IMG/VR virus record: IMGVR_UViG_3300021438_000010
Location: 1-64,000 of that record
Length of the DNA stretch: 64,000 nucleotides
Direction: 5' to 3' (one strand)
Source: a virus
Shown here: piece by piece, positions 5,678 through 32,163 of the stretch
Numbering within the stretch: position 1 is the stretch's first letter
Layout of the letters: each line of letters opens with the position of its first letter
The notes under the pieces: model-generated
Seen by the model: only the letters and a program-made list of their open reading frames with translations
Told to the model about the DNA's origin: nothing
Database searches by the model: none
Program-made: the position numbers and the translations under genes

Positions 5678-6018
5678 CAAGCAATACAAGTTCAGAAAGT
5701 CTAAATACAGAAGAAACGTTAGCAGACAACAATGTTGCACTTAGACGGCCAATGTCTAGTGGCATTATAGGCTTGACAAAAGATATAACATATACGCCAA
5801 ATGCGGCAAATGTTAGTCCATTAGCACCAAATAATTTAGTATTTGCAACCACTGGAATTTCTAATGGTTATCAATCTTCTTTAGATACAAGTGGAATAAC
5901 TAATTTTACTGCTTATAATGATTACATACATAATGAAGGCTTTAGAAGAAAAAATGTGATGGGAACTTTAGTATTAGCTTCACAAAGATTTGAAGTATAC
6001 AGTAGACAATTTAGGTAA
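5674..6018 (+). CDS. Small virion-operon protein, 114 aa, unknown
   Basis: A 114-residue protein with a Ser/Thr/Asn-rich, probably disordered N-terminus and a more ordered C-terminal half with a short basic segment (GFRRKN) and the strand-like ending VLASQRFEVYSRQFR. The ATG overlaps the stop of the 612-residue structural gene (ATGA), which supports translation. No family recognised. Small proteins between two large tail or baseplate genes are often assembly or connector subunits, but nothing in the sequence fixes a role. Confidence 0.55.
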   Translation: MTSNTSSESLNTEETLADNNVALRRPMSSGIIGLTKDITYTPNAANVSPLAPNNLVFATTGISNGYQSSLDTSGITNFTAYNDYIHNEGFRRKNVMGTLVLASQRFEVYSRQFR

Positions 6019-6023
6019 ATAAT

Positions 6024-9000
6024 ATGTGGCTAACAAGCGGAAATTTAAATCAAAGATCACAGGTTAAAACTGGAATAGGCGGAAATAGTGCTATACCAGC
6101 TAGTGGTTATTATGGAAATAGCTGGCCATCTAAAAGTGGAAGTGTAATTCCACAGGGTATATCAACTGGAGGGTGGGTATTAGATTCAACCACACCAGAG
6201 ACATATGATAGAGGATATGTACAACAGACTTTTCTGGGAGCATCTATCAGAAGCTTCACTATGAATGGCGGTTTTGGAGATAATAGTTCATCTTTAACTG
6301 TAGAATTAGTAAATGATGAGTTTAACAAATCAGATAATACTGCCCAAGGAGTTGGTGATGATGTTTATCATTCTGGAAATGGAGATAGATTTGTTCCACC
6401 AATAGTTGGAAGCCCTGTTTATTTTAAGTTTGGTCAAAATTTAGCCACAGTAGAAGAAGCTTATAGAAGAACCTTTGATGAATTATATGGGTTCAATACA
6501 TTAAGCGCACAAGCAACTGTTAGTTCTAATGGCTCATTTAACAAAGATAATTTTACTTCTTTAAGTGATTATACTTATGTAAATTTAGATAATAATCAAT
6601 TTTATAATTTTTCAAGCACAATGACGGGTCCAGCAAGAGGATCTGGTCACATTGTATTTGGTGGAATACTACAGTCTTATGTGCAAAATCGTGGCCCCGG
6701 AGGAAATCCATTATATACGGTTCAAGTAACTGATCCGAGGGAAATACTATCAAATGTAGTAGTCATATTAAATAATTACTCAGGTACTACTTTTAATACT
6801 CAAAATGTATTAAATGTATATGGTTTTTTAGAACATAATATGACGGGGGCATTATCTGGAATATTACAAAGTGCTTATGGTAATTATAATTTATTGAAGA
6901 AAAAAGTTGATATGAACACTGGCAAAATATCTTACGTTGGATCTGCCGGTGATACTACTGATCCAAGGCTAAGTGGACTTTTAGATTGCTGGTATCAAAC
7001 TGGTGGTGGTTGGTTTGGAAATACATTTAAATATTTTCCTGTCACCGGTACTGGTTTTTCTAGAAGAGGACCACAAGGAATTCCGTATTATAGAGTCAAA
7101 CAGGCTTTGAATGCATTGATGTCTGTTGGATATAAACTGCCAGATGAATATAAAAATAAATGCTATGGTAAAAAAATTAATTTTAGAGGGTATAGATATA
7201 TCGTAGATTTTAGTGGACTAAAAGATTTGCCACCAATGTATTTTTTAGATTTTGATCAAATTAATCTTTTAGATTTAGCATTAGAAATATGTGATGTAAC
7301 AAGTAGAGATTTATTTGTTTCATTATTGCCAGTTATAAATCATCCAGCATGTTTGCCAATATACAATGATCAAAATAGTTCTGGAGAAGAAGTAGTTGCT
7401 GGAATTATTAGATTAGACAGTATAGATAGGTCACATGCTCCAGTATATGGATCTATTAAAAAATATATAGATAGTTTGGCATCATCTGGAATATTAGTAG
7501 AAAATCAAGATGTTGGATATGAATTATCTAATGTTACAACAGATAAATTTGTTGTTGGCGCACAAGAAGTAGATATGTATTATTTTACTGCAAATACTGA
7601 TAGGGGAATGAAAAATGCAAGAAATAGAACTACTGCCGGTGATAATTGGCATCAGTGGCTTTTAGATAAGCAAGAAGAACAACAAATTCTGCCATATTAT
7701 GGTTTGCTTGGTAATAATGCCGTGACTATCCCAAAGGGTTGGGGAGCCTATCAGCAAATTTTGCTAGACACTACTGGATTAAATGCTAATGGTGTTGGCT
7801 GTTATTATGTTGCAACTGAAATGGAACTAAGATGCGCTTCAGTATCATATGAATGCTGGAAAAATTTCTTACAGCAATATAATGATATTTATTTAGAATC
7901 TGTTGAGGGGAATGATAGTTATGAGGGTGGAGTTTTACAAGGAAGCGCATCTTTTTCAAGTGTTCCCAATCCTCCAAATATATCTAGTAATTATGCTGTG
8001 ACTGTTCCAAGGTCGGTTTTTGAAACTTTTGCTACTACAGCTTTTAGTGGAGGATATCCAACAAGTCCATGTAATCCGCCGTATGGATATCCATTATATT
8101 ATAAACGAATGACTAAATTAGGTATTCCAGAGGGCGGTCTAACAAAATTACAGCATAGAATTACTACGATGATAACTGGTGCCGCAAGTATAAGAGGAGC
8201 AGATGCCGAAAATTATCAAGAAATAAAAAATGCTCAATTAAAAGAATTAGAATCTATTAAAGAAGAATATGGAACTCTTTCTCAAGCAGAACAAGATTAT
8301 TACAATGCTGTTAAAGCAGCTTTAGCTACTACTCCACCAAGTATAGACTTGTTAAACGATATAGAGGAATCTTTACACAAGATGGCGGCTGTATTACCTA
8401 GATTAGCTAAAAAAGGTACTGAAAATGCACTAAAAGTATATGAATTTTTGAAAAAAATAGCAGATGAAAATTTAGGTAAAAAATTTCTTGTAAAAATACC
8501 TAATAAAGTCAATTTGTATTATCAAAATAATATGACTCAAAGTTCTTCTACTATAACTGCTGGACCTTTTGGATTTAAACCTAGACCAACAGAGTCTGGA
8601 ATTGGATCTGAATTTTCTTCATCTTTTAGAACTACATATCGCGGATTAGCTACTAATGATATGGTTTATAGTTTTTGTCAAAGCGGTACTACTGCTAATC
8701 AAGAAAAATATGGCGGTGCTTTAAAAAGTAATTTTAATCCAGTAACAGATAAGCATGAATTCAATTATACTCCTGTTAATTTAGGTGGATATTTTCCATT
8801 TGATTTATATACAAATACTTTGCCGATGAAAACAATAGAAACCTTGCCAACTTCGTCTAGACCAAGTGGTGTTGTAAATATGTTAATTCCTCAAGACTTA
8901 ACAAATTTCTTAGATGAAAACGGAAGAGTATCTGCATATGTTAGATTTGATCAAAGTCAGCATCTGTCATTTGACAACATAAACTCAGAAGATTTTACTC

Positions 9001-10709
9001 AACAGCTAATAACTCCTCAAGGTATGGTTCCAGACCTTTGTGAATTTTTAGATAACGTAGGTGAGAGCAAGTGGGAATCTTTTGCAACAGCTGATGCCGA
9101 TAAAAAAGATAACGATAATAATAAACCTAAACAATGTGCCTTTGTGAAATGTACTTTAGATGAAAAGTTTTATATGCCCCCAAAGATACTTTCATCTTCT
9201 GTCCCGGTCTATGGTGCCGCAGATTATAGGAAAAAGATTTCAAAACCAAGAAAGATTTTTATTCCATGTTCTGGATGGAAACCCGGAACGAGTCGAACAA
9301 GTACCGATGATTTAATGCCGGGAACAGGATGTTATGTAGATAGTTTTAGATATACAGAGTTGAGTTACTATCCAACTGAGTCACAAAGTTCCACCGCCAC
9401 TAGATACGTTTATGATAGAAAACTACAACCATTTTTAAATAGTTTCATAATTAAAACTGATTTCGCTGATTTAGATACTAATTGTGTTTATGCTTTAATA
9501 ACACTTCCAAATAGGATTGCTGCGACCAAGGATGCTAGATATAGAGATGCTGCTAATCAAAAAGATAGTGCCTATTCAATAAAACATTACTTGACAATAG
9601 ATGTTGTAAAAAATCTTCCAGAATTTAGTAGTCCCGGCTATGCTAAGTTATCTACTAGTAATTTATTAGCTGGTGATCCTACTTGTAAGCATTATCCGGT
9701 AGAATCAAGAAGTGCCGCTTGGTTAGCTGCTAAAAAAGCAAAATCCGCTCTTCAATTTGGTTTTTCTCAACAAATGGAAATGGTTGCACCATCTCCAGTA
9801 TATCCAGATTTGGTAGCATTGCCATTAATGTCTAACGAAAGATGTTATGGCCCTTGGATTTCTTCACAAGTAGATCCGCAAGGATCAGCGTATATAAATG
9901 TTGGAGGAAGAGTAGAATTTATCAAAGATGAGAATTTGGCACCTTGGAACTATGCTGGATATGAACTTCTTAATATTGCTGGAAAAACTCAAGCAGAATT
10001 TGCAAATAGTCTGTTACTTTTTTCAGAAAGAGGAGGATTTACATATCCCGGTATGCCAACTTCTTCCTTGTGTCAGGTTTTACTATCTGGTGGTCCACTA
10101 GTAACAAATATAACCGTAGATGTATCAGATAATGGAATAAAAACAACATATAAAATGGATCTTTATACTGCTAGTTTTGGAAAATTACAAAAACAAAAAC
10201 AAGATATGATTTCTAAAATTAGTAGAGAAAGACAAAGACTAAGAGATGAAAGAAATGCTTTGATTAGAAAAGGCATAGGAAAAGGGCAAACTAGTTTAAA
10301 TATTGTTGGTGCTATAAACATGTTTGGTAATAATGGAACGCTGCCATCTATACCAAATGCCGCTAACCATATAGTTGCATCAGTAGCTCAATATGATACT
10401 AAATTATATAGTCCAGTATTACCATCTACAACTGGAGTTCCGTCTGTAGATAATGTTTACTCAGCATCTTTACAAAATGAAGAACAAATTCATGATAATT
10501 TTAACATTTTTGATAGTCCTATTCAACGAAATATTGCAGAATATAACGCCGGTGCAGCTAGAATAGATGATCTTTATATTCCATATTCTAATGAGCCGTA
10601 TCATGGCAATATACCTCATATGGAGTATGTTGACTATAGAGCAAATAATAGATTATATGAAAATGATGATTTCAAGATTCAAGACGATAACATAACGTCG
10701 CCAGCATAA
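6024..10709 (+). CDS. Very large virion protein, baseplate-hub-like N-terminal region
   Basis: A 1,561-residue protein. Residues ~70-100 (SFTMNGGFGDNSSSLTVEL) resemble the opening strand pair of phage tail-hub proteins, and around residues 410-435 LLDLALEICDV ... LFVSLLP resembles the hub helix-strand element; both are by-eye resemblances. Two helical, charged segments (about residues 731-818 and 1385-1420) could form coiled coils inside an otherwise beta-rich, Tyr/Asn/Gly-rich protein. The Shine-Dalgarno is weak (TAGGTAAATAAT before ATG), five bases after the previous stop. The best guess is a central baseplate or tail-tip component; size is unusual for a simple hub, so fused adhesin domains are likely. 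Confidence 0.55.
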   Translation: MWLTSGNLNQRSQVKTGIGGNSAIPASGYYGNSWPSKSGSVIPQGISTGGWVLDSTTPETYDRGYVQQTFLGASIRSFTMNGGFGDNSSSLTVELVNDEFNKSDNTAQGVGDDVYHSGNGDRFVPPIVGSPVYFKFGQNLATVEEAYRRTFDELYGFNTLSAQATVSSNGSFNKDNFTSLSDYTYVNLDNNQFYNFSSTMTGPARGSGHIVFGGILQSYVQNRGPGGNPLYTVQVTDPREILSNVVVILNNYSGTTFNTQNVLNVYGFLEHNMTGALSGILQSAYGNYNLLKKKVDMNTGKISYVGSAGDTTDPRLSGLLDCWYQTGGGWFGNTFKYFPVTGTGFSRRGPQGIPYYRVKQALNALMSVGYKLPDEYKNKCYGKKINFRGYRYIVDFSGLKDLPPMYFLDFDQINLLDLALEICDVTSRDLFVSLLPVINHPACLPIYNDQNSSGEEVVAGIIRLDSIDRSHAPVYGSIKKYIDSLASSGILVENQDVGYELSNVTTDKFVVGAQEVDMYYFTANTDRGMKNARNRTTAGDNWHQWLLDKQEEQQILPYYGLLGNNAVTIPKGWGAYQQILLDTTGLNANGVGCYYVATEMELRCASVSYECWKNFLQQYNDIYLESVEGNDSYEGGVLQGSASFSSVPNPPNISSNYAVTVPRSVFETFATTAFSGGYPTSPCNPPYGYPLYYKRMTKLGIPEGGLTKLQHRITTMITGAASIRGADAENYQEIKNAQLKELESIKEEYGTLSQAEQDYYNAVKAALATTPPSIDLLNDIEESLHKMAAVLPRLAKKGTENALKVYEFLKKIADENLGKKFLVKIPNKVNLYYQNNMTQSSSTITAGPFGFKPRPTESGIGSEFSSSFRTTYRGLATNDMVYSFCQSGTTANQEKYGGALKSNFNPVTDKHEFNYTPVNLGGYFPFDLYTNTLPMKTIETLPTSSRPSGVVNMLIPQDLTNFLDENGRVSAYVRFDQSQHLSFDNINSEDFTQQLITPQGMVPDLCEFLDNVGESKWESFATADADKKDNDNNKPKQCAFVKCTLDEKFYMPPKILSSSVPVYGAADYRKKISKPRKIFIPCSGWKPGTSRTSTDDLMPGTGCYVDSFRYTELSYYPTESQSSTATRYVYDRKLQPFLNSFIIKTDFADLDTNCVYALITLPNRIAATKDARYRDAANQKDSAYSIKHYLTIDVVKNLPEFSSPGYAKLSTSNLLAGDPTCKHYPVESRSAAWLAAKKAKSALQFGFSQQMEMVAPSPVYPDLVALPLMSNERCYGPWISSQVDPQGSAYINVGGRVEFIKDENLAPWNYAGYELLNIAGKTQAEFANSLLLFSERGGFTYPGMPTSSLCQVLLSGGPLVTNITVDVSDNGIKTTYKMDLYTASFGKLQKQKQDMISKISRERQRLRDERNALIRKGIGKGQTSLNIVGAINMFGNNGTLPSIPNAANHIVASVAQYDTKLYSPVLPSTTGVPSVDNVYSASLQNEEQIHDNFNIFDSPIQRNIAEYNAGAARIDDLYIPYSNEPYHGNIPHMEYVDYRANNRLYENDDFKIQDDNITSPA

Positions 10710-10724
10710 TATAAAGGACAAATT

Positions 10725-13700
10725 ATGGCACTTTTTTCAAGACCCGGATCTGAACTTGCTAGAAATTTCCACAGCTACATTGCTGATAGGCCGAGCCTTC
10801 AAAACATTGGACTAGCATCATATACTAAAAATTCAATGCAAAAATTTGGTAAAGAAAGAAGAAATGGACAAGATGTTGAAGTTGCAGATATCAAAGAATA
10901 TTTTGGAGGTACTATTCCTAGGTCAGATTTACTTGGAACATCTGCCACATTATCTATACTCAGATTTGATAAAGGAAATAAAAGATACGTTATGTGTACT
11001 TCTTCCGGTAGCGGAGAAGATAATTTATGGTATACTCCGAGTGGAAATTTTGGTGGCGGTCTAAGTCAATATCAAGATAGATTTGATTTATATCAAAAGG
11101 GCTTTATAACAACAGATCTTGAAAAATATCAAATAAGTTATGTTTGGTCTAAAATACAAACTAGTATGTCGGGATGTATCACATTTCAAGCTAATTACAC
11201 TGTTTTATCATGTCCAGATAGTGGGGTTATAAGGTTATATTTTCAATCCGCCGGAAAATCTAATGGAGATAGAAGTGTAGCAAACAAAGGCGCACCTATA
11301 GTTGCAGCAACTCCAAGAAGACCAACTGGCCCACAATATTCTCACGCTAGCACAAAAGAATCTGCACCCGGAGTTTATATTCCAGCTAGAGAGGGTGGAG
11401 ATAATAATCCAGAAAATACTATTGCGGCTAAGTTTAAGATGCACTATGATCCAGCTACTGGTCAATGGGAGTCTGGAACCACGCAAATGATGTTTAGACT
11501 TTTAACAGATATAGATGGTGTGCCATTAAAAGATTTGCCGCCGGATGTAGACACAGTAGGAATTGATGAATTTTATCAAGGTGGATTATCATCATCATTT
11601 ACCGTTGGTAGCGGTATGGCTGTTAGCACAGAAAATGGAAATCCATATTTATTTGGTCCCAATACTAATAGTTGCGCCAATAATGCCCCAAAAGAAAAAG
11701 TTATTTTAGTAAATAGAACCCCAAGAAGTTATACTAAAGGTGAGATTGTTATAGCCAGTTTGATAAATGGCGAATGGATACCAATGGGTTTTGGTTTACC
11801 TAAAACGGTTTCTAAAAAAGTAGATATTCAATGGTCACAAATACAAAAATATATTGTTAATTCAGCCGTATTTTTTAGAAATGCTTCAGATACTGATTAC
11901 GTTACACCGGATGATTATAAAAATCACGTAAGGTATAAATTCTATTCTTCACTGGCCGGTTTATCTAATTCCGCAATGCTTACTAGCTCTGGCAATGATT
12001 TGAATAAAATTGCTTTATTAAATCTTGATGCTCAACCACTAGAATCATATACGCTTAATGACAATGGAACAATAAAATTTACTACCACGACTATATCATC
12101 ATTACCTAATTATAATAAATACATTAATATGGTTCCAAGTACTGGATACTTTCAATTCTTTGATGCAGACACAATTAATGCTAGTTTTGGTGGAAATAAT
12201 AACAATAATTCAAAACTCAAAAAAACAAATATTGCACAAATGCCACAAGATGTTCCAGACGTTGGAGAGGTATATGCTGAGAATGTTCCATCTAGCTGGG
12301 GGTTATATTTTAGAGATGGGTATACTTCTGCTAGTGTTTCTAGGCTAAAAAGTAATACAACGGCAACGTCTGCATTTGCTGTTAATGGGGCTGGTTCAAA
12401 AATCATTTATGCTCCATCTACTTTAAATTTTGCTGATACGACAAGTCTAGACTTAAGTGATTCAAATTTTTATCATTTACCAGCTCAAATTGCTCTTAAT
12501 TCTTCTGGTAATCAAACGATGTTCATGGAATTGTTGTGGTTTAAACAAAATCAAGCGGGATCATATGCCAATAATTTAATAAACTTTTTTAAGGATCCAT
12601 TGAAGGGCGATTATTTATATAAAAATAATAATACTACAATATTTGGATTATCACCAGTAAATTCAACATCAGTACAATTTACTCCGTTATCATTGGAATT
12701 AGCTTTATGTAGCACCATAATACCAGCAGACCATGCTATAAAAGCTATTAATGGAGGCTACGAAGACTTAAGGATAAACCTAGCATATCAAAATTGGACT
12801 AAAGATGCATTTGGCAAAGCTTGGGAAAGACTTGGAGGTTCAAGAGGTCAACCATTTATAATTGATACAACCAATAATATTCAAACATGGGTTCCTTTTG
12901 GTAAAATTTTGATAAGAAATGGGCAAATTGTTAATCCAGCAAGAAAAGATACAAAACCAGATGGTGGGCCGGGTATCTTACCGCAAGATAATGGAGATGA
13001 AATATCTAATGTCGTTGGAATATTAGCCGCAAAAGCAACAGTAAATCTTCCTGCTGGTGGACAACTAGAACTAAGAACTGATAACCATTTTGGTCTTAAC
13101 GCTTATGGCGTTGTTGGGGGTGGGGGTGGGTTTTTGTCATTTATACCAACAATGTTTGGATTAGTTCCCGGTGCAGACGGAAGAAGTGAAATTAAAAAAT
13201 ATGATTTTGTTCAATGGGGTAGTAGTAGTTCTGATGGAGATATAAAAGCGTTTGGAACAACTGCCTTATATTGTGCTATTGAAGATCATTGTCCAAGTTC
13301 AATATATGACGGAAGATATCTTACATCTCTTCAATTTCATGGAAACTCTGTTGATCTTGCTGGACAGCCAATAGATGTTGAAATTCCTGCAACTGGAACT
13401 GGAACAACAAAAGTACCATTAACAGTTGGAACAGTGATAGATTCAACATACGCTCAAACAATAACAACAATTAAAAATCCTATTAGAAGAAACATGCTTT
13501 TAACTGGGGGAGGATTTTACTATATTAAGAGAGTACTTGGAGCTAATACAGCAGCTTCTGCAATAGAAATTAAAGATATAGATCCTGCTCATCCAGCAAC
13601 TGGATATGTTGATGGTGACTTAGTATTGTTTCAAGGTTCAAAGCCAGCAACTTTTAAGGTTACGCAAACAGATGCTAATGGAAAAATAACTAAGATAGAA

Positions 13701-14105
13701 ATAGATGATTCATTGGGAACTGATGCTTATGGAGAATTTACTGGAAATCCATTCAAGAGCGCACCTATAGAAGCATATCCAAAGTCTCAGAATGGCAGGG
13801 GAGCTAAAATATTACTAAAATCTGGTAAAATTATAGAAAAAGTTATGTTAGATTCTATTAATAACTATAATATTCAAGTATTGACACCATCCGACAATGA
13901 TGGTGGCGGCGATTCTTACGGATATGTCAGATCTTCCAAAAGTGTAACTTATAATTTAGCCCAAAATTCAAATGGAAAGTATGATATATTGTTCTTTTTT
14001 GTCAATGATATAGCAAATTACCCAGAAAATAGTGCTGGTGCCAATGGGCAGATGGAGACTATGCCATTTGCACAATATGTTAATCTAAATATAAGCGCAA
14101 ACTAA
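10725..14105 (+). CDS. Large virion protein, Gly-rich, 1126 aa
   Basis: A 1,126-residue protein without signal peptide or membrane helices, starting at an ATG with AAGGA 8 bases upstream. It is Ser/Thr/Asn/Gly-rich and strand-rich, typical of fibre or baseplate-wedge proteins. A hydrophobic Gly run (VVGGGGGFLSFIP) near residue 795 is encoded by an uninterrupted G-rich stretch at about 13113-13135. The C-terminal ~200 residues look like a compact beta domain (GTGTTKVPLTVGT, GRGAKILLKSGKIIEK). No family recognised. It is the fifth gene of the + strand run and is followed by a short gap carrying a -10-like box, so it probably ends the long operon. Confidence 0.6.
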   Translation: MALFSRPGSELARNFHSYIADRPSLQNIGLASYTKNSMQKFGKERRNGQDVEVADIKEYFGGTIPRSDLLGTSATLSILRFDKGNKRYVMCTSSGSGEDNLWYTPSGNFGGGLSQYQDRFDLYQKGFITTDLEKYQISYVWSKIQTSMSGCITFQANYTVLSCPDSGVIRLYFQSAGKSNGDRSVANKGAPIVAATPRRPTGPQYSHASTKESAPGVYIPAREGGDNNPENTIAAKFKMHYDPATGQWESGTTQMMFRLLTDIDGVPLKDLPPDVDTVGIDEFYQGGLSSSFTVGSGMAVSTENGNPYLFGPNTNSCANNAPKEKVILVNRTPRSYTKGEIVIASLINGEWIPMGFGLPKTVSKKVDIQWSQIQKYIVNSAVFFRNASDTDYVTPDDYKNHVRYKFYSSLAGLSNSAMLTSSGNDLNKIALLNLDAQPLESYTLNDNGTIKFTTTTISSLPNYNKYINMVPSTGYFQFFDADTINASFGGNNNNNSKLKKTNIAQMPQDVPDVGEVYAENVPSSWGLYFRDGYTSASVSRLKSNTTATSAFAVNGAGSKIIYAPSTLNFADTTSLDLSDSNFYHLPAQIALNSSGNQTMFMELLWFKQNQAGSYANNLINFFKDPLKGDYLYKNNNTTIFGLSPVNSTSVQFTPLSLELALCSTIIPADHAIKAINGGYEDLRINLAYQNWTKDAFGKAWERLGGSRGQPFIIDTTNNIQTWVPFGKILIRNGQIVNPARKDTKPDGGPGILPQDNGDEISNVVGILAAKATVNLPAGGQLELRTDNHFGLNAYGVVGGGGGFLSFIPTMFGLVPGADGRSEIKKYDFVQWGSSSSDGDIKAFGTTALYCAIEDHCPSSIYDGRYLTSLQFHGNSVDLAGQPIDVEIPATGTGTTKVPLTVGTVIDSTYAQTITTIKNPIRRNMLLTGGGFYYIKRVLGANTAASAIEIKDIDPAHPATGYVDGDLVLFQGSKPATFKVTQTDANGKITKIEIDDSLGTDAYGEFTGNPFKSAPIEAYPKSQNGRGAKILLKSGKIIEKVMLDSINNYNIQVLTPSDNDGGGDSYGYVRSSKSVTYNLAQNSNGKYDILFFFVNDIANYPENSAGANGQMETMPFAQYVNLNISAN

Positions 14106-24784: not shown

Positions 24785-26452
24785 TTACATACCTCTAGAT
24801 TTTAACATTTCGATTCTTTTGTTTTCCCAAAAATTTCTTCTCATACACAAGTGAGACATTTGTTCATAAGCGATGTCAAAATCAAATGGATTTCTAGTCT
24901 GCTTAGAATCAAAAGCGGCAGAGCTTTCGTTGAAATACATTCCGCCTGTTGTAGACGTTGCACTTCTATAAGTCAAATCTCTTACTAGTCTAGACTCAAA
25001 ATAAGAATTTATACGCTCTGGCTCTCCAAGTACTTCACTTATAAGCCATCTTGCAATCTCTTGTATCGGTGCCTGTTCTGGTATTTCTTTTGGTTTTGGT
25101 TGAGGGTTTTTGATCCTTGGTTCTGATTTCCAATTCTGAAAATTTTCAGATATTTGAACACTATCAAAATAATTTTCCCAAGCTTTGCCACTCTTATCCC
25201 ATTGATAATGTTTTAGAAATGCTTGCCTAGTCTCAAAGCCCAGCCTTTTTCTAATACTAATTGGTTGCTCAAAAAATTCCTTAAACTTCTTTGCTGCTAA
25301 CTCATTATCTGGAACTGCTCTAAAGCATCCTGTTTCAAGCTCTTTATATAAAGCCCTTGGCGTCAGAGGAGTTCCACCAAGATTCCTTACAACACTTTCC
25401 ATAGCAGAATAATCTGTTGCCATAACTGGTATTCCGCAAGCGGCGGCTTCTACTTGTGGCAATCCAAAGCCTTCGCAATTTGCATATTGTACATAAAGAT
25501 CAAACAAATTTATTATCTTAGAAAGATCTTCATATTCAACACCGTGTTTTACATTTGATAGCGAAGCACCATATTTACCAGTATACGGAGACTGTGCAAT
25601 AGCCCCTTTAAACAACGATGGAAAAGGTCTTCCTGTTTGACCGCATATATAAGTGAAATATACTTTGGATGATAATTGATATTGTTGTAAAAGTTCTGGA
25701 ATATCCCAACCTAAATCTGGATAACTAGTATGACAATATAGATAATAATTAGAGTTATCTTCTACGCTATCTAACAATAGTCTAAAGGCTTGAAACAGAT
25801 CTGGATACAACTTCCTTCTCTGGTTTCTCATGACTGTGCCAATAATTTTAGCCTCTGGATTAATTCCAAATGAAGCCCTTAATCCAGATTTGTCTTCTAT
25901 TGGTTGATATGCATTATGTGCGGAAGGAGGAGAAATCCCTATATAATTTATCTTTCCCCCAGACTGTTGTTTTAAAACTTCTCCAGCCCATTCTGAATAA
26001 GTTAAACATGCATCTGCTGATTTATAAGTTGAAACCCACTGCCTTGCTTGCGGTCTTGCGTCTACCGTTGGCATTATACACCATTTAAAATATGGCCTAA
26101 ATGGTGATCTTTCCGCAAAATCCAACATCCAAAAGTCTCGTATGTCACAAACAATATCTGGTAAGAAATCCAAACATACTGGTTCAAAAATCAATTCCCC
26201 AAATTGTGCTAGCGGATTCTGATTATATTGATTTTTCTCATCGTCAGGACACGAAGAGTCTGGAACAACGCCGTAATATTTCCAAGGTATGTTTTTAGCT
26301 CTTGAATCATGACGTTCACCATATGAAGCCATTTCAGCTAGTTCGTACTTTCCAGTACTATACAAATAATTTAATATTTCTCTAGTATAAGTAGCATAAC
26401 CGGTATTTAAGAATGTTGCTTCACTACAAAATAATATTCGTGGTTTTCTCAT
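24785..26452 (-). CDS. Large GT4-type glycosyltransferase, 555 aa
   Basis: A 555-residue GT-B enzyme opening MRKPRILFCSEATFLNTGYATYTREIL. The donor site is clear at NCEGFGLPQVEAAACGIPVMATDYSAMESV (residues ~320-350). The extra ~130 C-terminal residues (after FDSVQ) contain a Pro/Lys linker (NPQPKPKEIPEQAP) and a helical region, not part of the usual fold. Its ATG overlaps the SSB gene's stop (TAATG), so the sugar block is transcribed on from the replication operon. A role in virion or surface glycan synthesis is inferred. Confidence 0.8.
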   Translation of the reverse strand: MRKPRILFCSEATFLNTGYATYTREILNYLYSTGKYELAEMASYGERHDSRAKNIPWKYYGVVPDSSCPDDEKNQYNQNPLAQFGELIFEPVCLDFLPDIVCDIRDFWMLDFAERSPFRPYFKWCIMPTVDARPQARQWVSTYKSADACLTYSEWAGEVLKQQSGGKINYIGISPPSAHNAYQPIEDKSGLRASFGINPEAKIIGTVMRNQRRKLYPDLFQAFRLLLDSVEDNSNYYLYCHTSYPDLGWDIPELLQQYQLSSKVYFTYICGQTGRPFPSLFKGAIAQSPYTGKYGASLSNVKHGVEYEDLSKIINLFDLYVQYANCEGFGLPQVEAAACGIPVMATDYSAMESVVRNLGGTPLTPRALYKELETGCFRAVPDNELAAKKFKEFFEQPISIRKRLGFETRQAFLKHYQWDKSGKAWENYFDSVQISENFQNWKSEPRIKNPQPKPKEIPEQAPIQEIARWLISEVLGEPERINSYFESRLVRDLTYRSATSTTGGMYFNESSAAFDSKQTRNPFDFDIAYEQMSHLCMRRNFWENKRIEMLKSRGM

Positions 26453-26763
26453 TAGTCTTCAAAGTCCTTGTGGCAGAAATCAAATTCATTAATTCTAAAT
26501 ACTATCTCATCACTGTCCTTGGTGACATTTTTAGCAGAGGCATTAACAACTAATTTTGTACCTTTTGTAGCATACTTTTCTAAAGTCTCAGCACCAGTAT
26601 GCCAAGCCTCGCAGTTTATATAAGTTGGAATCCTGTTTTTCTCTCCGGTCTTAGTTTTACGATAAGTATATATAACCATAGTAAACTGGGCTAAAACTAT
26701 ATCTCCAACCATAGAGACTCTTGGGTTTTCAACCAAGTATCCCGTAAAAGAACATATATTCAT
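26452..26763 (-). CDS. SSB-like OB-fold protein
   Basis: A 103-residue protein with the SSB pattern: MNICSFTGYLVENPRVS, LAQFTMVIYTY, YINCEAWHTGAETLEKYATKGTKLVV (the W-x-x-x-A-E ... K-G helix-strand of bacterial SSB). No acidic C-terminal tip of the DDDIPF kind, although it ends KDFED. The ATG at 26763 has AAGGAG nine bases upstream. It lies directly downstream of the polymerase C-terminal half. This is one of two SSB-like genes; the other is at 57928. Confidence 0.75.
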   Translation of the reverse strand: MNICSFTGYLVENPRVSMVGDIVLAQFTMVIYTYRKTKTGEKNRIPTYINCEAWHTGAETLEKYATKGTKLVVNASAKNVTKDSDEIVFRINEFDFCHKDFED

Positions 26764-26774
26764 CAAAACTCTCC

Positions 26775-26816: not shown

Positions 26817-28385
26817 TCAGATTTCATGAATTTTATCAACAATAAAAGAGGCATCATTAGCATTAACAGATCCACAAAAGATTAAATTATTACCTTCATA
26901 TAGTACATATTTATACTTTTCACGTACTTTTGGAAAGATTATAACACTATCTAATATACAAGTATCATCTTCTATTGTTAAAAATGACATAACCTGCCCC
27001 TTTGAATCACCTTTAGTAATTGTATAATCTGATAATCTCTGTATGTTAGCTACTATGCACATATCCTTGCCCTTTTTGCCATTAACAATTTCTTTACATG
27101 TAGTGTTAGCGGCAGACGTATCGGAAATTTCAACCTTAGTCATAGTAACAGGACAGCCTAAAAATTTAATTTCTTGATCTACTATCCAGCTGGGGTCATC
27201 TTCCAAATCATAAGGTGGATTGATAAGCAGTTGTATTTCATTCTCTACGGCTTGTTTTCTGTCAGCTTTGCTAGTTCCTCCACCTTCCTTTTTTGTAGGT
27301 GCTAAATCTTTTAAACAGTCTATAAAAGTATCCCATTTTTTTAGTGGATAATTATTTAATATCCAAGTCTGTTCAGATTTAGTAAGAGTTCTGTATATCT
27401 CATAGTCATATAAGGCTTTATTTCTACTGATGCTTCCTTTAAAGTTTCTAAAAAAACCTATTGAAGATAAAGCTTTAAAAGCTGTAGAACTGATATTTGC
27501 ACCAATAAATAACAAAATTTCAAGCCAAGTAAACTTGTCAACACTTTTTCCTAAATCTTGTTCTGCAACTATAATAGTCTCAATCAATTTATCTCCCGTT
27601 GCACCAGTTAATGATTTTATATCTTTGATACCAAAGTATATTTTTCCATTCTTTATATTAAACTTACGATCAAAGTTCGTTAAGCTTGGGGTTCTTGTTT
27701 CAATATCAAATAATTTAGCTTCTGATATTAATTCATAAACTTCTTGATGAGGATCTTGCTTTTCATTGGCATAGTACAAATATGATAGAAAAAACTCTTT
27801 AGTATTGTGGGCCTTAAAGTATGCACTCCAATAGGAACATACTGCATATGAAACACTGTGAGATTTATTAAAAGCATACCGTGAAGATTTTTCAATCCAT
27901 CCGAAAATTTGTTCAGCCTCGTCCTTAGAAACGATTCCAACACGCTCTGCTCCTGCTATAAATGATTTCTTAACTTCGTTCATAAGATCGGCTTTCTTCT
28001 TTCCGATAGCTTTACGAAGAACGTCAGCCTCTTGCAAATTAAATCCAGCAATTTTTTCAGCTATACGCATTGATTGTTCTTGATATACAAGAACACCATA
28101 CGTTGGTTTTAATATATCCTCTAGTGCGGGATGTAAATAGGTTACTTCTTCCCTTCCATGCTTTCTGTCTACATAACGCTGGGTCATGCTTTTACCATCA
28201 ACGAAAGCTTTCAAAGTTCCCGGTCTAATGATAGCAATTAATGCAGAAAGTTCTTCTAAATTCGTTGGTGCTAATTTCTTAGACCAAGACTTCCCAAGAT
28301 TACTTTCTAATTGAAAAATACCCTTGGTTTTACCCTCTGCAAATAATTGCCATGTTGCTTTATCATTATAATCAATATCGATCAT
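26817..28385 (-). CDS. dnaE: DNA polymerase III alpha subunit, C-terminal half
   Basis: A 522-residue protein equal to the part of DnaE after the catalytic palm. It opens MIDIDYNDKATWQLF ... KGIFQLES, aligning with the E. coli segment PLDDPKSFNML ... TAVFQLES, then IIRPGTL, YGVLVYQEQSM, RKAIGKKKADLM (fingers) and YAFNKSHSVSYAV. The C-terminus has an OB domain (VANIQRLSDYTITKG ... MSFLTIEDDT). The three palm aspartates are not here; they lie in the N-terminal half at 29900-31531, so both are needed. No intein motifs are visible at the N-terminus. The ATG overlaps the HNH gene's stop (ATGA). Confidence 0.88.
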   Translation of the reverse strand: MIDIDYNDKATWQLFAEGKTKGIFQLESNLGKSWSKKLAPTNLEELSALIAIIRPGTLKAFVDGKSMTQRYVDRKHGREEVTYLHPALEDILKPTYGVLVYQEQSMRIAEKIAGFNLQEADVLRKAIGKKKADLMNEVKKSFIAGAERVGIVSKDEAEQIFGWIEKSSRYAFNKSHSVSYAVCSYWSAYFKAHNTKEFFLSYLYYANEKQDPHQEVYELISEAKLFDIETRTPSLTNFDRKFNIKNGKIYFGIKDIKSLTGATGDKLIETIIVAEQDLGKSVDKFTWLEILLFIGANISSTAFKALSSIGFFRNFKGSISRNKALYDYEIYRTLTKSEQTWILNNYPLKKWDTFIDCLKDLAPTKKEGGGTSKADRKQAVENEIQLLINPPYDLEDDPSWIVDQEIKFLGCPVTMTKVEISDTSAANTTCKEIVNGKKGKDMCIVANIQRLSDYTITKGDSKGQVMSFLTIEDDTCILDSVIIFPKVREKYKYVLYEGNNLIFCGSVNANDASFIVDKIHEI

Positions 28386-28732
28386 TTATTCCTCGACAAT
28401 AAGTAATTCAATGCTTGAATTAAGCCCTCTATGTTATCTCCTAATCTACTAATCCCTACATTGCAATTATTGCATAGCCATCCGCGAAATAAATCTGTTT
28501 TATGGCAATGATCTAAGTGTAATTTTCCAATTTTTCCACAACAGTCGCATTTGATCGGTTTAGTATGATTGTTTTCCTTTTTAAGTTTGATTAGTAATGC
28601 ATTTATTTTATACTCACAAGATTTACAATTTGTATATGTTCTTAATAAAGAATTATCTTCTGATCTTTGTCTATATCGAAATTCAGATTCATCCTTAAAT
28701 TGTCCACATTTTGGGCAAATCTTATTTGACAT
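28382..28732 (-). CDS. Endonuclease VII-type HNH endonuclease
   Basis: A 116-residue zinc-bound HNH nuclease of the recombination endonuclease VII kind: CPKCGQFK and CKSCEYK at the N-terminus, CDCCG, then LHLDHCHKTDLFRGWLCNNCN with the D-H-C-H and L-C-x-x-C-N core. I take the ATG at 28732 because the longer frame would start deep inside the exonuclease gene. It sits between the DnaQ-like gene and the polymerase C-terminal half with start/stop overlaps. It may be a homing nuclease that broke the polymerase gene, or a structure-specific nuclease. Confidence 0.8.
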   Translation of the reverse strand: MSNKICPKCGQFKDESEFRYRQRSEDNSLLRTYTNCKSCEYKINALLIKLKKENNHTKPIKCDCCGKIGKLHLDHCHKTDLFRGWLCNNCNVGISRLGDNIEGLIQALNYLLSRNK

Positions 28733-29402
28733 ATAAATTTCCGTCAGCAAATGCCTTATCAAAGTTCATGTTCTGATATACTGCACGATGAGTCTTCATA
28801 AGCTTTATGAATATATTAGCTTCATCTTTAACGTCTTGCAATGCATCGTGTGCATTATCAAATGATAGTCCCATTCTTTCTCGTAGTGAGTCCATACTAA
28901 TAGATCTTACACTCGGATCACTCTCTGTCCAAGCAAATATACTATCCATAATGTCAATTTTGTAAACTCTACTAAATAACTTTTGCTGTTCTCTTTCCTT
29001 ATCCCAAGGACCAAATTCTTTGCACAGACGATTGATAATATGCATATCAAACCCAAGAATATTAAAACCTACAGGAATTGGATTATAAAAAGCATCGCCC
29101 TTCCAATTGTATTGATCAACAAATTTGGTAAATTTAGTCCACACTGACTTTAGAGAAGGTGCTAATTCTAATTGTTCTCTTGTCTTTTTAGTAATCTTTA
29201 ATGCTTCATCTTCAATCGGATCAAACCCTGCCGCCCTAGCTTTGTCTTCATCAAATATAGGCTTAATTTCGCTATTGAATTGTCCCTTCATTGTTAAACT
29301 TCTACCATCTAATGCTATGGCAGCAATCTGAGTTGGTTGTGTGCGATGAGGATTTCTGCTTCCAGTTTCAAAGTCAAATATAATATAGTCTCTATTAGCC
29401 AT
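28722..29402 (-). CDS. DnaQ-like 3'-5' exonuclease (DEDDh)
   Basis: A 226-residue exonuclease. Motif I is IIFDFETGSRNP (residues ~7-18), motif II is VGFNILGFDMHIINRL (~107-122), motif III is HDALQDVKDEANIF with the H-x4-D of the DEDDh class (~190). This is the proofreading fold of the DnaQ epsilon subunit, and its place between the two halves of the polymerase alpha subunit makes a proofreading partner likely. No clamp-binding motif was identified. Starts eight bases inside the methyltransferase gene. Confidence 0.85.
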   Translation of the reverse strand: MANRDYIIFDFETGSRNPHRTQPTQIAAIALDGRSLTMKGQFNSEIKPIFDEDKARAAGFDPIEDEALKITKKTREQLELAPSLKSVWTKFTKFVDQYNWKGDAFYNPIPVGFNILGFDMHIINRLCKEFGPWDKEREQQKLFSRVYKIDIMDSIFAWTESDPSVRSISMDSLRERMGLSFDNAHDALQDVKDEANIFIKLMKTHRAVYQNMNFDKAFADGNLYVK

Positions 29403-29919
29403 GATAGTGCAATACTCCTAATCCTTTTTCTACCTTATGAATTCTAAATGGGTATCTGGAAAGATCTATTGTGGTTCCTTTAATGGAAAAATCATCAATA
29501 CATATGTAGATATCTTGTAAATTAAAAGACAATATTTTATCAAATTGATTTTTAGTTTCGGATGGATCTACACTTCCGTCTAGATAGTAGAGGTTGTATT
29601 CTGGAGTAATATAGTCTATTCCATCACCATAACAAAGATTAACATCGTAGCCTAGCTGGCTTGAAATTAAATTTGAGTGTGCTAAATGATCCAAGGATAT
29701 ATCTGCTATAGTAAATATTCCACCATTTTTCTTTATATAGTTACCAAATATTATGTCAGACCAACCAGAACCTATCCTAAATAAATAATTATCTAGTGTT
29801 TCTATGGCACCAATTTGAAAAATATTAATAGGCTTATTAGAAAAAGTATTCAATACATTTAAAAATACTTCATCCCTTGGACTAGATATATTTATTAACT
29901 CATTTATTTTGTCTATCAT
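29395..29919 (-). CDS. Class I methyltransferase-like protein inside polymerase locus
   Basis: A 174-residue alpha/beta protein. NIFQIGAIETLDNYLFRIGSGWSD looks like a weak SAM motif I, GIFTIADISLDHL like motif II with its acidic residue, and NLYYLDGSVDP plus IYICIDDFSIKGTTI resemble the D-G and I-D-D-x segments of Methyltransf_24/O-methyltransferases. The start has GGAG eight bases upstream and lies 20 bases inside the end of the polymerase N-terminal half. Target unknown; sugar or small-molecule methylation is as likely as anything linked to replication. Confidence 0.5.
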   Translation of the reverse strand: MIDKINELINISSPRDEVFLNVLNTFSNKPINIFQIGAIETLDNYLFRIGSGWSDIIFGNYIKKNGGIFTIADISLDHLAHSNLISSQLGYDVNLCYGDGIDYITPEYNLYYLDGSVDPSETKNQFDKILSFNLQDIYICIDDFSIKGTTIDLSRYPFRIHKVEKGLGVLHYHG

Positions 29920-31531
29920 TAATGATCTCCTCTATTTTCATTATTTTATCAAGAAGGTTTATACCAAGAACATCAAACTTTACATGACCCAAAGCCTCCA
30001 AATCCGACATTTCTAATCCAGCAATTTTTTCCGATGATCCTTTTTGTTTTACCATAGGACATACTTGTTGTAATGGTTCAGCAGATATAACAACACCAGC
30101 AGCATGTTTACCTTGAGTCTTAAATGTACCCTCTATTTGAATAGCCTGCTCAAAATATTCAGCATATTCTCCATCTAATTTGTTGTCTTCTGATAATCTA
30201 CAAAAGTCTCGTAATGCATCAGAATTATTTATTAATGCCCACTTTATAATAGATCTATCTTCATCATCCATTTCTGCTAATTGATCTGAAATTTTAGCTT
30301 CATCTGGAATGCAGTTACTGATAGCATTCATCTCTGCGAATGAACAAGCCTCATTTATACGCAATACTTCTTTTATGGCACTTTTTCCTTGTAGCCTACC
30401 AAAAGTTAACATTTGACTAACTCTTTCATGACCATACTTGTCTTTAATATATGAAATAATTTCATCACGTTTAGTACCGGGAACGTCCATGTCAATATCT
30501 GGTAAAGATATATGATCGGCAGTATTTCGCCCAGCATTATAAAATCGTGCAAACAGAAGATCAAACTCTATAGGATCAATCTTAGTAATACCAATTAAGT
30601 ATGAGATTAAACAACCTGCGGCAGACCCTCTACCGGGACCAGAAAGCCAGCCCATATCATTAACATGCTGTATAATATCACGAACAATTAAAAAATATCC
30701 GAATAGATTAGCACCTTTAATAACATCAAATTCTTCCTTGAATCTACTAAGATATTTCTGCTTATCTTCTTCTTTTGATACTTTGCCTTGATCTATTAAT
30801 ATTTTCTTCCAACCTATGCGACATAGTTCTTTAAGATAATCTTCTTCTGTCGCTCCTTTTGGACACTCAAATTTTGGAAGCATTGGCTTGCTAAGAATAT
30901 CGTAGTCTTCGCATTGGTCATAAATCTTTTTTAGTTTAGTTATATCTAAACCCTTGGTTTCTGTTTTGTCTTTTACATAGAAAGAATCGCTAGTAAAAAA
31001 ACTTAATTTATCTAGATGTTCCTTGGGATATTTATTTTCATCTACTAAAATATCTCCATCTAGGGCTTTATGCAAAGACTTCTTTATCTTTGGTAATGTT
31101 GTCTTCATCTCTGAACACAATAATATTCTATGAAGCTTTGCATCTTCACGATTAGTATAATAGCTGATAGGCATTGATTCGTCGGGAGCATTGAAGACAC
31201 TAATGAGATTTTTGCTAACCTCTAAGCTATCAAAATCTCTTGGTAATTTGCCATTTTCGTCCAATGCTGAAACCATCTCAATCAATTCATACCAACCTTC
31301 TTTGTTCTTAGCAAATAATGTAGTAGCATCAAAAGAGCATCCAATAATAGGCTTTATACCATGCTTTTTACAAGCCTTATAAAATGCTACTGCTCCAGAT
31401 AATGTCTTATAATCACAGATACCACATGCTGGATATCCATTTTCTTTACATTTTTTAGCCAATTCTTCTGGTTTTGAGTAACCTTTTAGCAAACTATAGT
31501 GAGTATAATTCTTCAACGGGAACCAATTCAT
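29900..31531 (-). CDS. dnaE: DNA polymerase III alpha subunit, N-terminal half
   Basis: A 543-residue protein equal to the PHP and palm domains of DnaE. It opens WFPLKNYTHYSLLKGYSKPEEL with ACGICDYKTLSGAVAFYKAC (PHP; the metal residues look partly replaced). SGPGRGSAAG and LPDIDMDVPG (~residues 290 and 347) carry the first two catalytic Asp; HVKFDVLGINLL (~518) carries the third. It stops shortly after with IINDRQNK, where E. coli DnaE continues toward the fingers; that continuation is encoded separately at 26817-28385. A strong sigma70-type promoter lies just upstream. Confidence 0.9.
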   Translation of the reverse strand: MNWFPLKNYTHYSLLKGYSKPEELAKKCKENGYPACGICDYKTLSGAVAFYKACKKHGIKPIIGCSFDATTLFAKNKEGWYELIEMVSALDENGKLPRDFDSLEVSKNLISVFNAPDESMPISYYTNREDAKLHRILLCSEMKTTLPKIKKSLHKALDGDILVDENKYPKEHLDKLSFFTSDSFYVKDKTETKGLDITKLKKIYDQCEDYDILSKPMLPKFECPKGATEEDYLKELCRIGWKKILIDQGKVSKEEDKQKYLSRFKEEFDVIKGANLFGYFLIVRDIIQHVNDMGWLSGPGRGSAAGCLISYLIGITKIDPIEFDLLFARFYNAGRNTADHISLPDIDMDVPGTKRDEIISYIKDKYGHERVSQMLTFGRLQGKSAIKEVLRINEACSFAEMNAISNCIPDEAKISDQLAEMDDEDRSIIKWALINNSDALRDFCRLSEDNKLDGEYAEYFEQAIQIEGTFKTQGKHAAGVVISAEPLQQVCPMVKQKGSSEKIAGLEMSDLEALGHVKFDVLGINLLDKIMKIEEIINDRQNK

Positions 31532-31617: not shown

Positions 31618-32163
31618 TCAAACCTGTATGCTTAAGAAATTATCAAGACCCATTTGCTCAATAAGCTTCAAATAACCTTCATATAATTCAATACCATCTT
31701 CACTACCTTGTAGTAATGGAGTCATCATATTAGCAGTAATTTCATCACCAACTGCCCTAGCCGCCACAATCGTTGCCCTCTCAGCAACAGACGCTTCTTT
31801 TACTGATGCAAGATTATATTCGATCATTGACACCATATCATGACGTTTCCACGAAGGCGGGCTTACCATCAATGGTTGATAGTCAGCGTCAAAAAATTCA
31901 AGTCTTTTAATATTGATTGCGGCGTGTTCTTGTTCTTGTTTTGAATCGGCCTTAATAATTTCTGCTAGTTTTTTGTATCCCCATCTTTCAAGATGTTCTG
32001 CTTGTGCTGTTAGAACAGTTGTTTGCTGCCAGTGAATATTTAATGATTTTTTCAATAGTTCTATAACTTGGTCACTAGAGTAACCAGACACTTCTTGTGC
32101 TATAACATCATCTTTTATTTCGGATTGATTCTGTTGATCCAAAAGTTCATTAATACTTGTCAT
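31618..32163 (-). CDS. Bacterioferritin-like protein with altered metal ligands
   Basis: A 181-residue four-helix protein. Residues ~63-105 (HLERWGYKKLAEIIKADSKQEQEHAAINIKRLEFF) and the end IEQMGLDNFLSIQV match bacterioferritin, whose C-terminus reads IQKMGLQNYLQAQI. Aligned by eye, the E-x-x-H of helix 2 remains (EQEH), but the haem methionine is Gln, the first helix-1 Glu position looks like His, and the helix-4 Glu/His pair appears lost. An extra ~25 residue N-terminal tail precedes the fold. It may be a cage or a DNA- or particle-associated protein without normal ferroxidase activity. Confidence 0.65.
   Translation of the reverse strand: MTSINELLDQQNQSEIKDDVIAQEVSGYSSDQVIELLKKSLNIHWQQTTVLTAQAEHLERWGYKKLAEIIKADSKQEQEHAAINIKRLEFFDADYQPLMVSPPSWKRHDMVSMIEYNLASVKEASVAERATIVAARAVGDEITANMMTPLLQGSEDGIELYEGYLKLIEQMGLDNFLSIQV

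What the first reader, a model, noticed from the sequence alone, without database searches (positions are those of the whole stretch)
26817..31531. DNA polymerase III alpha subunit split into two genes, with three genes between
Seen: the N-terminal gene (29900-31531) has the PHP and palm with all three catalytic Asp and stops right after VKFDVLG; the C-terminal gene (26817-28385) resumes at the matching point before GIFQLES with its own ATG. A methyltransferase-like gene, a DnaQ-like exonuclease and an endonuclease-VII-type HNH gene lie between, all start/stop overlapped. Inference: the holoenzyme is rebuilt from two polypeptides, possibly with the exonuclease as partner; the HNH gene may have caused the break. 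The junction differs from the cyanobacterial split-intein site, which is intact in the C half (AFNKSH), and no intein motif is seen at either end.
Basis: partly seen in the sequence, partly recalled or inferred. Interest (0 to 1): 0.8.

Follow-up and report, generated by a model that had tools for sequence, protein, structure and literature searches.

The report
Phage replicative polymerase split in two
A large group of uncultured viruses of bacteria encodes its only recognisable DNA-copying enzyme as two separate proteins, with a proofreading-type enzyme gene always linked to the break; the break is old and conserved, so it gives a natural system for studying a replicative polymerase that must assemble from two parts without protein splicing.

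Summary
In detail: a full-length DnaE-type Pol III alpha is encoded as two ORFs (PHP+palm; fingers+HhH+OB), cut in the palm/fingers linker (E. coli alpha ~577|586-589), with no intein or Rfam intron. One correction: the N half runs 20 residues past VKFDVLG. Both halves are under strong purifying selection (dN/dS 0.02-0.07), keep D401/D403/D555 in 124/124 loci, and fold confidently alone. The split is not a local accident: 159 sequence-distinct IMG/VR loci (25 lineages at 68% identity) read N - exonuclease - C at the same junction; one relative is fused. Twelve records (80-210 kb) have no PolA, PolB or second Pol III. The HNH gene did not cause the break: related genes lie in only ~36/159 loci, and the window's copy is a recent arrival (dS 0.014 against ~0.9 or more for N, exonuclease and C). 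The DEDDh exonuclease is the only gene always linked to the break; one relative keeps it without catalytic residues. Some relatives are cut again in the palm by a split intein, giving alpha in three genes. Most likely: a non-covalently assembled two-subunit alpha plus an epsilon-like exonuclease. New variant of a known kind (split phage polymerases).

The parts
29900..31531 (-). alpha-N: PHP + palm/thumb half of DNA polymerase III alpha (543 aa)
   Evidence: PF02811, PF07733; aligns to E. coli alpha up to residue 577; AF2 pLDDT 88.9, pTM 0.87, 2hnh TMq 0.75; catalytic Asp 345/347/520 invariant in 124 loci
29395..29919 (-). methyltransferase-like cargo gene (174 aa), an optional insert between N and exonuclease
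   Evidence: no Pfam/PHROG family; between N and exonuclease only in the window and its near relatives L002/L003; relatives elsewhere after C or GT in L025/L075
28722..29402 (-). DEDDh (DnaQ/epsilon-like) 3'-5' exonuclease (226 aa), always linked to the break
   Evidence: PF00929 E 4e-14; phrog_192 'DNA polymerase exonuclease subunit'; between N and C in 159/159 split loci; D10, E12, D119, H185, D190 in 124/124
28382..28762 (-). endonuclease-VII-type HNH gene (126 aa from TTG; an ATG start at 28732 is more likely), recent mobile insert
   Evidence: PF02945 E 2e-11; dS 0.014 to L002 against 0.5-2.0 for the neighbouring genes; identity peak 96-99% decaying on both sides; related inserts in ~36/159 loci
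26817..28385 (-). alpha-C: fingers + HhH + OB half of DNA polymerase III alpha (522 aa)
   Evidence: PF17657; aligns to E. coli alpha from 589; AF2 pLDDT 87.5, pTM 0.74, Foldseek to Pol III alpha E 1e-20; ATG with GAGG upstream
26452..26766 (-). SSB-like protein, conserved next gene of the operon
   Evidence: PF00436 E 2e-8; follows C in nearly all relatives

Best explanation
The phage's replicative polymerase is a DnaE-type Pol III alpha made as two separately translated proteins, alpha-N (PHP, palm, thumb; all three catalytic Asp) and alpha-C (fingers, HhH, OB). They associate non-covalently along the palm/fingers interface, without splicing, and work with an epsilon-like DEDDh exonuclease whose gene lies in the break. 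The cut is in the natural linker between the last palm helix and the fingers, so no domain is damaged, and co-translation from one operon favours assembly. The break is old and unrelated to the HNH and methyltransferase-like genes, which are later passengers. SHOWN: the split, its conservation, selection on both halves, intact active sites, exonuclease linkage, absence of another recognisable polymerase, signs of recent mobility of the HNH gene. INFERRED: non-covalent assembly, polymerase activity, exonuclease contact, and that the break arose by insertion of the exonuclease (with or without a small upstream gene).
For: 159 sequence-distinct loci with N-EXO-C at the same linker, none with N+EXO or EXO+C fused; own start codon in all, 142 ATG, C start mostly overlapping the exonuclease stop by 8 or 11 nt where they adjoin. 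dN/dS 0.03-0.07 (N) and 0.02-0.03 (C). Catalytic residues invariant in 124/124. Each half folds alone with high confidence and matches the corresponding part of Pol III alpha. No PolA, PolB or second Pol III alpha in 12 records of 80-210 kb. A relative, L047, has the same two parts as one 1158-aa ORF. No intein or Rfam intron in the window. Distance matrices of N, C and EXO correlate.
Against: No experiment. A complex of the two halves could not be predicted with the tools. The E. coli clamp-binding motif is not recognisable by eye in alpha-C and no beta clamp was found, so the route to processivity is unknown. All close relatives are metagenomic; no cultured member was found.
Confidence: 0.85

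Rival explanations
1. The halves are rejoined covalently by an unrecognised process: a degenerate split intein, RNA splicing of a long intron carrying the exonuclease gene, or translational bypass.
For: Split inteins do interrupt the palm in relatives L061, L070, L071, L130, and a contiguous intein lies in the C half of L062 and L302, so splicing elements live in these genes.
Against: No Int-N/Int-C sequence at this junction in the relatives inspected; N tails are only 13-30 aa and vary. Interval length varies from 0.67 to ~7 kb. Rfam finds no intron. The C half always has its own start codon, and the interval carries a conserved replication-type gene, not just an intron endonuclease.
Confidence: 0.05
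2. The HNH (endonuclease VII-like) gene made the break by homing, as in homing-endonuclease-split T4-like genes.
For: The gene sits between the halves; its synonymous divergence from L002 is ~60 times lower than that of N and C and it lies in a conversion-like tract, as for a homing gene.
Against: Only ~36/159 loci have a related gene there; 32 have only the exonuclease between the halves. The same break is in lineages only ~45% identical. The gene is a late arrival. An unrelated, since-lost endonuclease as original cause cannot be excluded.
Confidence: 0.05
3. The exonuclease is not only a proofreader but a structural bridge that holds alpha-N and alpha-C together, which would explain why it never leaves the break.
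For: Linked to the break in all split loci; even where ~6 kb of cargo separates N from C (L191) it stays directly before C. Its non-catalytic C-terminal tail (KAFADG-type) is conserved, and in L302 an exonuclease-like protein lacking all five catalytic residues is still between the halves. In the fused L047 the exonuclease gene lies outside the polymerase.
Against: Operon conservation alone can keep neighbours; one dead copy is a single case; no interface was modelled.
Confidence: 0.3
4. The split is decay: a pseudogene pair or dispensable polymerase, replication being done by the host enzyme.
For: No sliding clamp was found; many phages use host polymerases.
Against: dN/dS 0.02-0.07, invariant catalytic residues in 124/124, conserved operon with SSB, primase and helicase nearby.
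Confidence: 0.03

Closest known systems
Minimal split Pol III alpha of group 2.2 jumbo phages (Iyer et al. 2021, PMC7824862)
   Same: Pol III alpha in a phage encoded as two standalone proteins proposed to reconstitute an enzyme, no intein reported
   Different: There: minimal (no PHP or other domains), cut between NTP-binding and Mg-binding parts, distant genes, accompanied by a PolB. Here: full PHP-palm / fingers-HhH-OB, cut after all catalytic Asp, one operon with the exonuclease, no PolA or PolB found
Cyanobacterial split DnaE (DnaE-n / DnaE-c; from own knowledge)
   Same: Replicative Pol III alpha encoded by two genes
   Different: Cyanobacterial halves are joined by a split intein at the FNKSH site; here no intein, a different site ~170 residues upstream, and the FNKSH site is intact
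Fractured genes with split inteins and free-standing endonucleases (Dassa et al. 2009, doi 10.1093/nar/gkp095; paper not held, content from own knowledge, citation seen in PMC10343443)
   Same: Phage replication gene broken in two with an endonuclease gene between; relatives L061 and L070 match this arrangement in the palm
   Different: The window's junction has no Int-N/Int-C, and its constant occupant is an exonuclease, not a homing endonuclease
Split Pol III alpha of Bacillus phage G gp339, Cellulophaga phage phiST, Bacillus phage Jayan, Alicyclobacillus phage MMB025
   Same: alpha in more than one ORF
   Different: Other break points: G just before VKFD; phiST and Jayan within the palm (~N residue 335-345); MMB025 within the fingers next to an endonuclease gene
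T4-like phages with gene 43 split by homing endonucleases; split archaeal PolB (from own knowledge)
   Same: Replicative polymerase as two polypeptides
   Different: Family B polymerases, different fold and break

Membership tests
DNA polymerase III alpha (DnaE type) | PHP + palm (PF07733) + fingers (PF17657), with the three catalytic Asp | tested here: met
   met by the two proteins together
DNA polymerase III alpha (DnaE type) | single polypeptide (usual state, not strictly defining) | tested here: not met
   two ORFs in the window and 159 loci; one chain only in L047
DNA polymerase III alpha (DnaE type) | internal beta-clamp-binding motif and C-terminal tau-binding domain | tested here: inconclusive
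   C half ends after the OB fold; no QxxMF-like motif seen by eye; no clamp found by PF02767
Split-intein fractured gene | Int-N at the end of the first half and Int-C at the start of the second | tested here: not met
   tails and starts in the relatives; met at another site in L061, L070, L071, L130
Split-intein fractured gene | free-standing endonuclease gene in the break | tested here: inconclusive
   HNH gene present in the window, but in ~36/159 loci only
Cyanobacterial split DnaE | break at the FNKSH site | tested here: not met
   site intact in the C half
Minimal split Pol III of jumbo phages | no PHP, distant genes, PolB present | tested here: not met
   PHP present, same operon, no PolB in 12 records
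DEDDh exonuclease (DnaQ/epsilon-like) | D-x-E, D, H-x4-D residues | tested here: met
   D10, E12, D119, H185, D190
DEDDh exonuclease (DnaQ/epsilon-like) | binds alpha through the PHP domain | not testable with these tools
   no complex prediction available
Endonuclease VII / HNH homing gene | Endonuclease_7 domain | tested here: met
   PF02945 E 2.4e-11
Endonuclease VII / HNH homing gene | homing demonstrated | not testable with these tools
   only sequence signs: dS drop and conversion tract

The most novel reading that the evidence does not exclude
A replicative polymerase core that is an obligate heterotrimer, alpha-N / exonuclease / alpha-C, in which the exonuclease-fold subunit holds the two alpha fragments together (and in some lineages has lost catalysis but kept this role), with some members making alpha from three genes, one junction closed by a split intein and the other never closed.
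Probability: 0.25. Interest if true: 0.82.

Novelty: new variant of a known kind. Interest (0 to 1): 0.64.

Why it matters
Replicative polymerases are essential and almost always keep palm and fingers on one chain. Here that boundary has stayed broken, without an intein, across a clade whose members are as little as ~45% identical, in viruses with no other recognisable polymerase. This makes it testable whether palm-fingers coupling needs a covalent link and whether an epsilon-like subunit can replace it. The same genes carry, in relatives, split inteins with free-standing endonucleases, contiguous inteins, a LAGLIDADG-associated break and one fused form, so the steps of gene fission and possible re-fusion can be compared in one family.

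Tried and rejected
HNH as cause of the break: rejected from its absence in most loci and its recent arrival. Intein or intron at the junction: none. Assembly error: rejected by recurrence. Second polymerase: none. Host from genome contigs: the scan found no relative. Was L047 fused ancestrally or re-fused? It nests in the split clade (SH-aLRT 91-98), but the AU test does not firmly exclude the split loci being one clade (p 0.125 with LG+G4, 0.051 with C20), so this stays open. Folding a fused L047 with N and C rows in one alignment failed because the aligner placed C halves on N columns (A1); the halves were folded apart instead. Dassa et al. 2009 is not held.

Full report
Observation. The window (bases 1-64000 of a 98.6 kb virus record) carries on the minus strand, in the order of transcription: alpha-N (29900-31531), an MT-like gene (29395-29919), a DEDDh exonuclease (28722-29402), an endonuclease VII/HNH gene (28382-28762), alpha-C (26817-28385), an SSB (26452-26766) and a glycosyltransferase-like gene (24785-26452). 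Primase, DnaB-like helicase, a PHROG-named exonuclease, dNMP kinase, class Ia RNR and a UvsX-like recombinase lie upstream. alpha-N matches E. coli alpha up to residue 577 and alpha-C from 589, so the cut lies in the linker between the last palm helix and the fingers, about 22 residues after D555.

Relatives. Scans of IMG/VR with each half and with diverged members gave about 290 loci. After removing copies, 159 loci that cover the region all read N - exonuclease - C on one strand; 25 lineages, the window's among them, remain at a 68% identity cut. One more, L191, has ~6 kb of metabolic-type cargo between N and the exonuclease, but the exonuclease still sits directly before C. No locus has N or C fused to the exonuclease. 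The only fused polymerase found inside the clade is L047 (1158 aa), where the exonuclease gene, with a small gene usually found beside it in the break, lies upstream of the polymerase and an HTH-bearing insert lies between. L074 and L076, fused, are distant outgroups.

Function. Both halves are under strong purifying selection: against near relatives dN/dS is 0.03-0.07 for N, 0.02-0.03 for C and 0.01-0.04 for the exonuclease, where dS is not saturated. The three palm Asp and the five DEDDh residues are invariant in 124 of 124 loci. The PHP metal-site residues are largely lost in the window's lineage (HxH replaced, ITDH to ICDY) but kept in some other lineages, so the exonuclease is the more likely proofreader. 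AlphaFold2 models of the halves alone are confident (N: pLDDT 88.9, pTM 0.87; C: 87.5, 0.74) and match Pol III alpha structures; N ends in a helix and C begins with a short loop. Twelve records of up to 210 kb hold exactly one PF07733 match each and no PolA, PolB or beta clamp. These records may be incomplete.

Cause and age of the break. Related HNH genes occur between exonuclease and C in about 36 of 159 loci; 32 loci have only the exonuclease between the halves. Between the window and L002 the HNH gene has dS 0.014, against 0.9-2.0 for N, exonuclease and C; identity is 96-99% over the HNH gene and falls to ~80% within roughly 0.3 kb on one side and 0.8 kb on the other. That is the pattern expected of recent homing with co-conversion, so the HNH gene is a passenger. 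The exonuclease is the only constant occupant. The simplest origin is insertion of the exonuclease, with or without the small gene, into the linker of an intact polymerase gene. Whether L047 keeps the ancestral state or was re-fused is unresolved: it nests inside the split clade, but with AU p of 0.125 and 0.051 for the alternative.

Further breaks in relatives. In L061, L070, L071 and L130 the N half is itself broken at GPGRG|S by a split intein: Int-N of ~90 aa starting C-F-(L/V)-P, Int-C of ~35 aa ending HN|S. Pfam Hint/intein profiles match below their cut-offs. L061 and L070 have a 264-291 aa nuclease-like free-standing gene (weak Phage_endo_I/TnsA-like matches) between. Such phages encode alpha in three genes. 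L062 and L302 carry a contiguous intein in the C half at RPG|C. L072 is broken before LPDID with a LAGLIDADG gene between; no intron was found by Rfam. In L302 the exonuclease-like protein between the halves lacks all five catalytic residues.

Comparison. Split Pol III alpha is not new as a kind. Iyer et al. 2021 (PMC7824862) describe a minimal one in jumbo phages; cyanobacterial DnaE is split with an intein (own knowledge); phages G, phiST, Jayan and MMB025 have other breaks. What appears new is a full-length alpha broken at the palm/fingers linker without an intein, conserved as the normal state of a large clade, with the exonuclease gene always at the break, plus three-gene versions. Literature searches of the open library found no description; most subscription papers were not searchable.

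Limits. All close relatives are metagenomic, the loci were found by similarity to the two halves, no host is known, and no assembly or activity has been shown.

Noticed in passing
L061 5950-8714, L070 7368-10444, L071 8031-10322, L130 4346-6311: Split intein at GPGRG|S of the palm (Int-N, sometimes a free-standing nuclease gene, then Int-C), so that alpha is in three genes.
   Followed up: partly
L062 ~10762-13008; L302 5951-8413: Contiguous intein in the C half at RPG|C (ends HHNFIA...VHN|C).
   Followed up: partly
L302 2451-3167: Exonuclease-like protein between the halves that lacks all five DEDDh catalytic residues; no Pfam match.
   Followed up: partly
L047 5908-11405: Fused N+C polymerase ORF with exonuclease and small gene upstream and an HTH-bearing insert between; natural fused counterpart, possibly a re-fusion.
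   Followed up: partly
L072 7386-10237: Palm broken before LPDID with a LAGLIDADG gene between; neither intein nor Rfam intron recognised.
   Followed up: partly
L041 9533-9760, L071 10326-10502 and about 70 other loci: Small proteins (58-76 aa, two families, 53 and 20 loci) of unknown function between N and exonuclease; no Pfam match.
   Followed up: no
L191 (reverse strand), L173 7050-9593: Large cargo between N and exonuclease: about five metabolic-type genes (6 kb) in L191, an 848-aa RCC1-repeat protein in L173.
   Followed up: no
window 29900-31531: PHP metal-site residues degenerate in the window's lineage but HxH/TDH kept in some other lineages of the clade.
   Followed up: partly
window 99-14105: Very large plus-strand ORFs (612-1561 aa) without any PHROG match.
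   Followed up: no
window 31618-32163: Ferritin/Dps-like gene directly upstream of alpha-N, present there in only some relatives.
   Followed up: no
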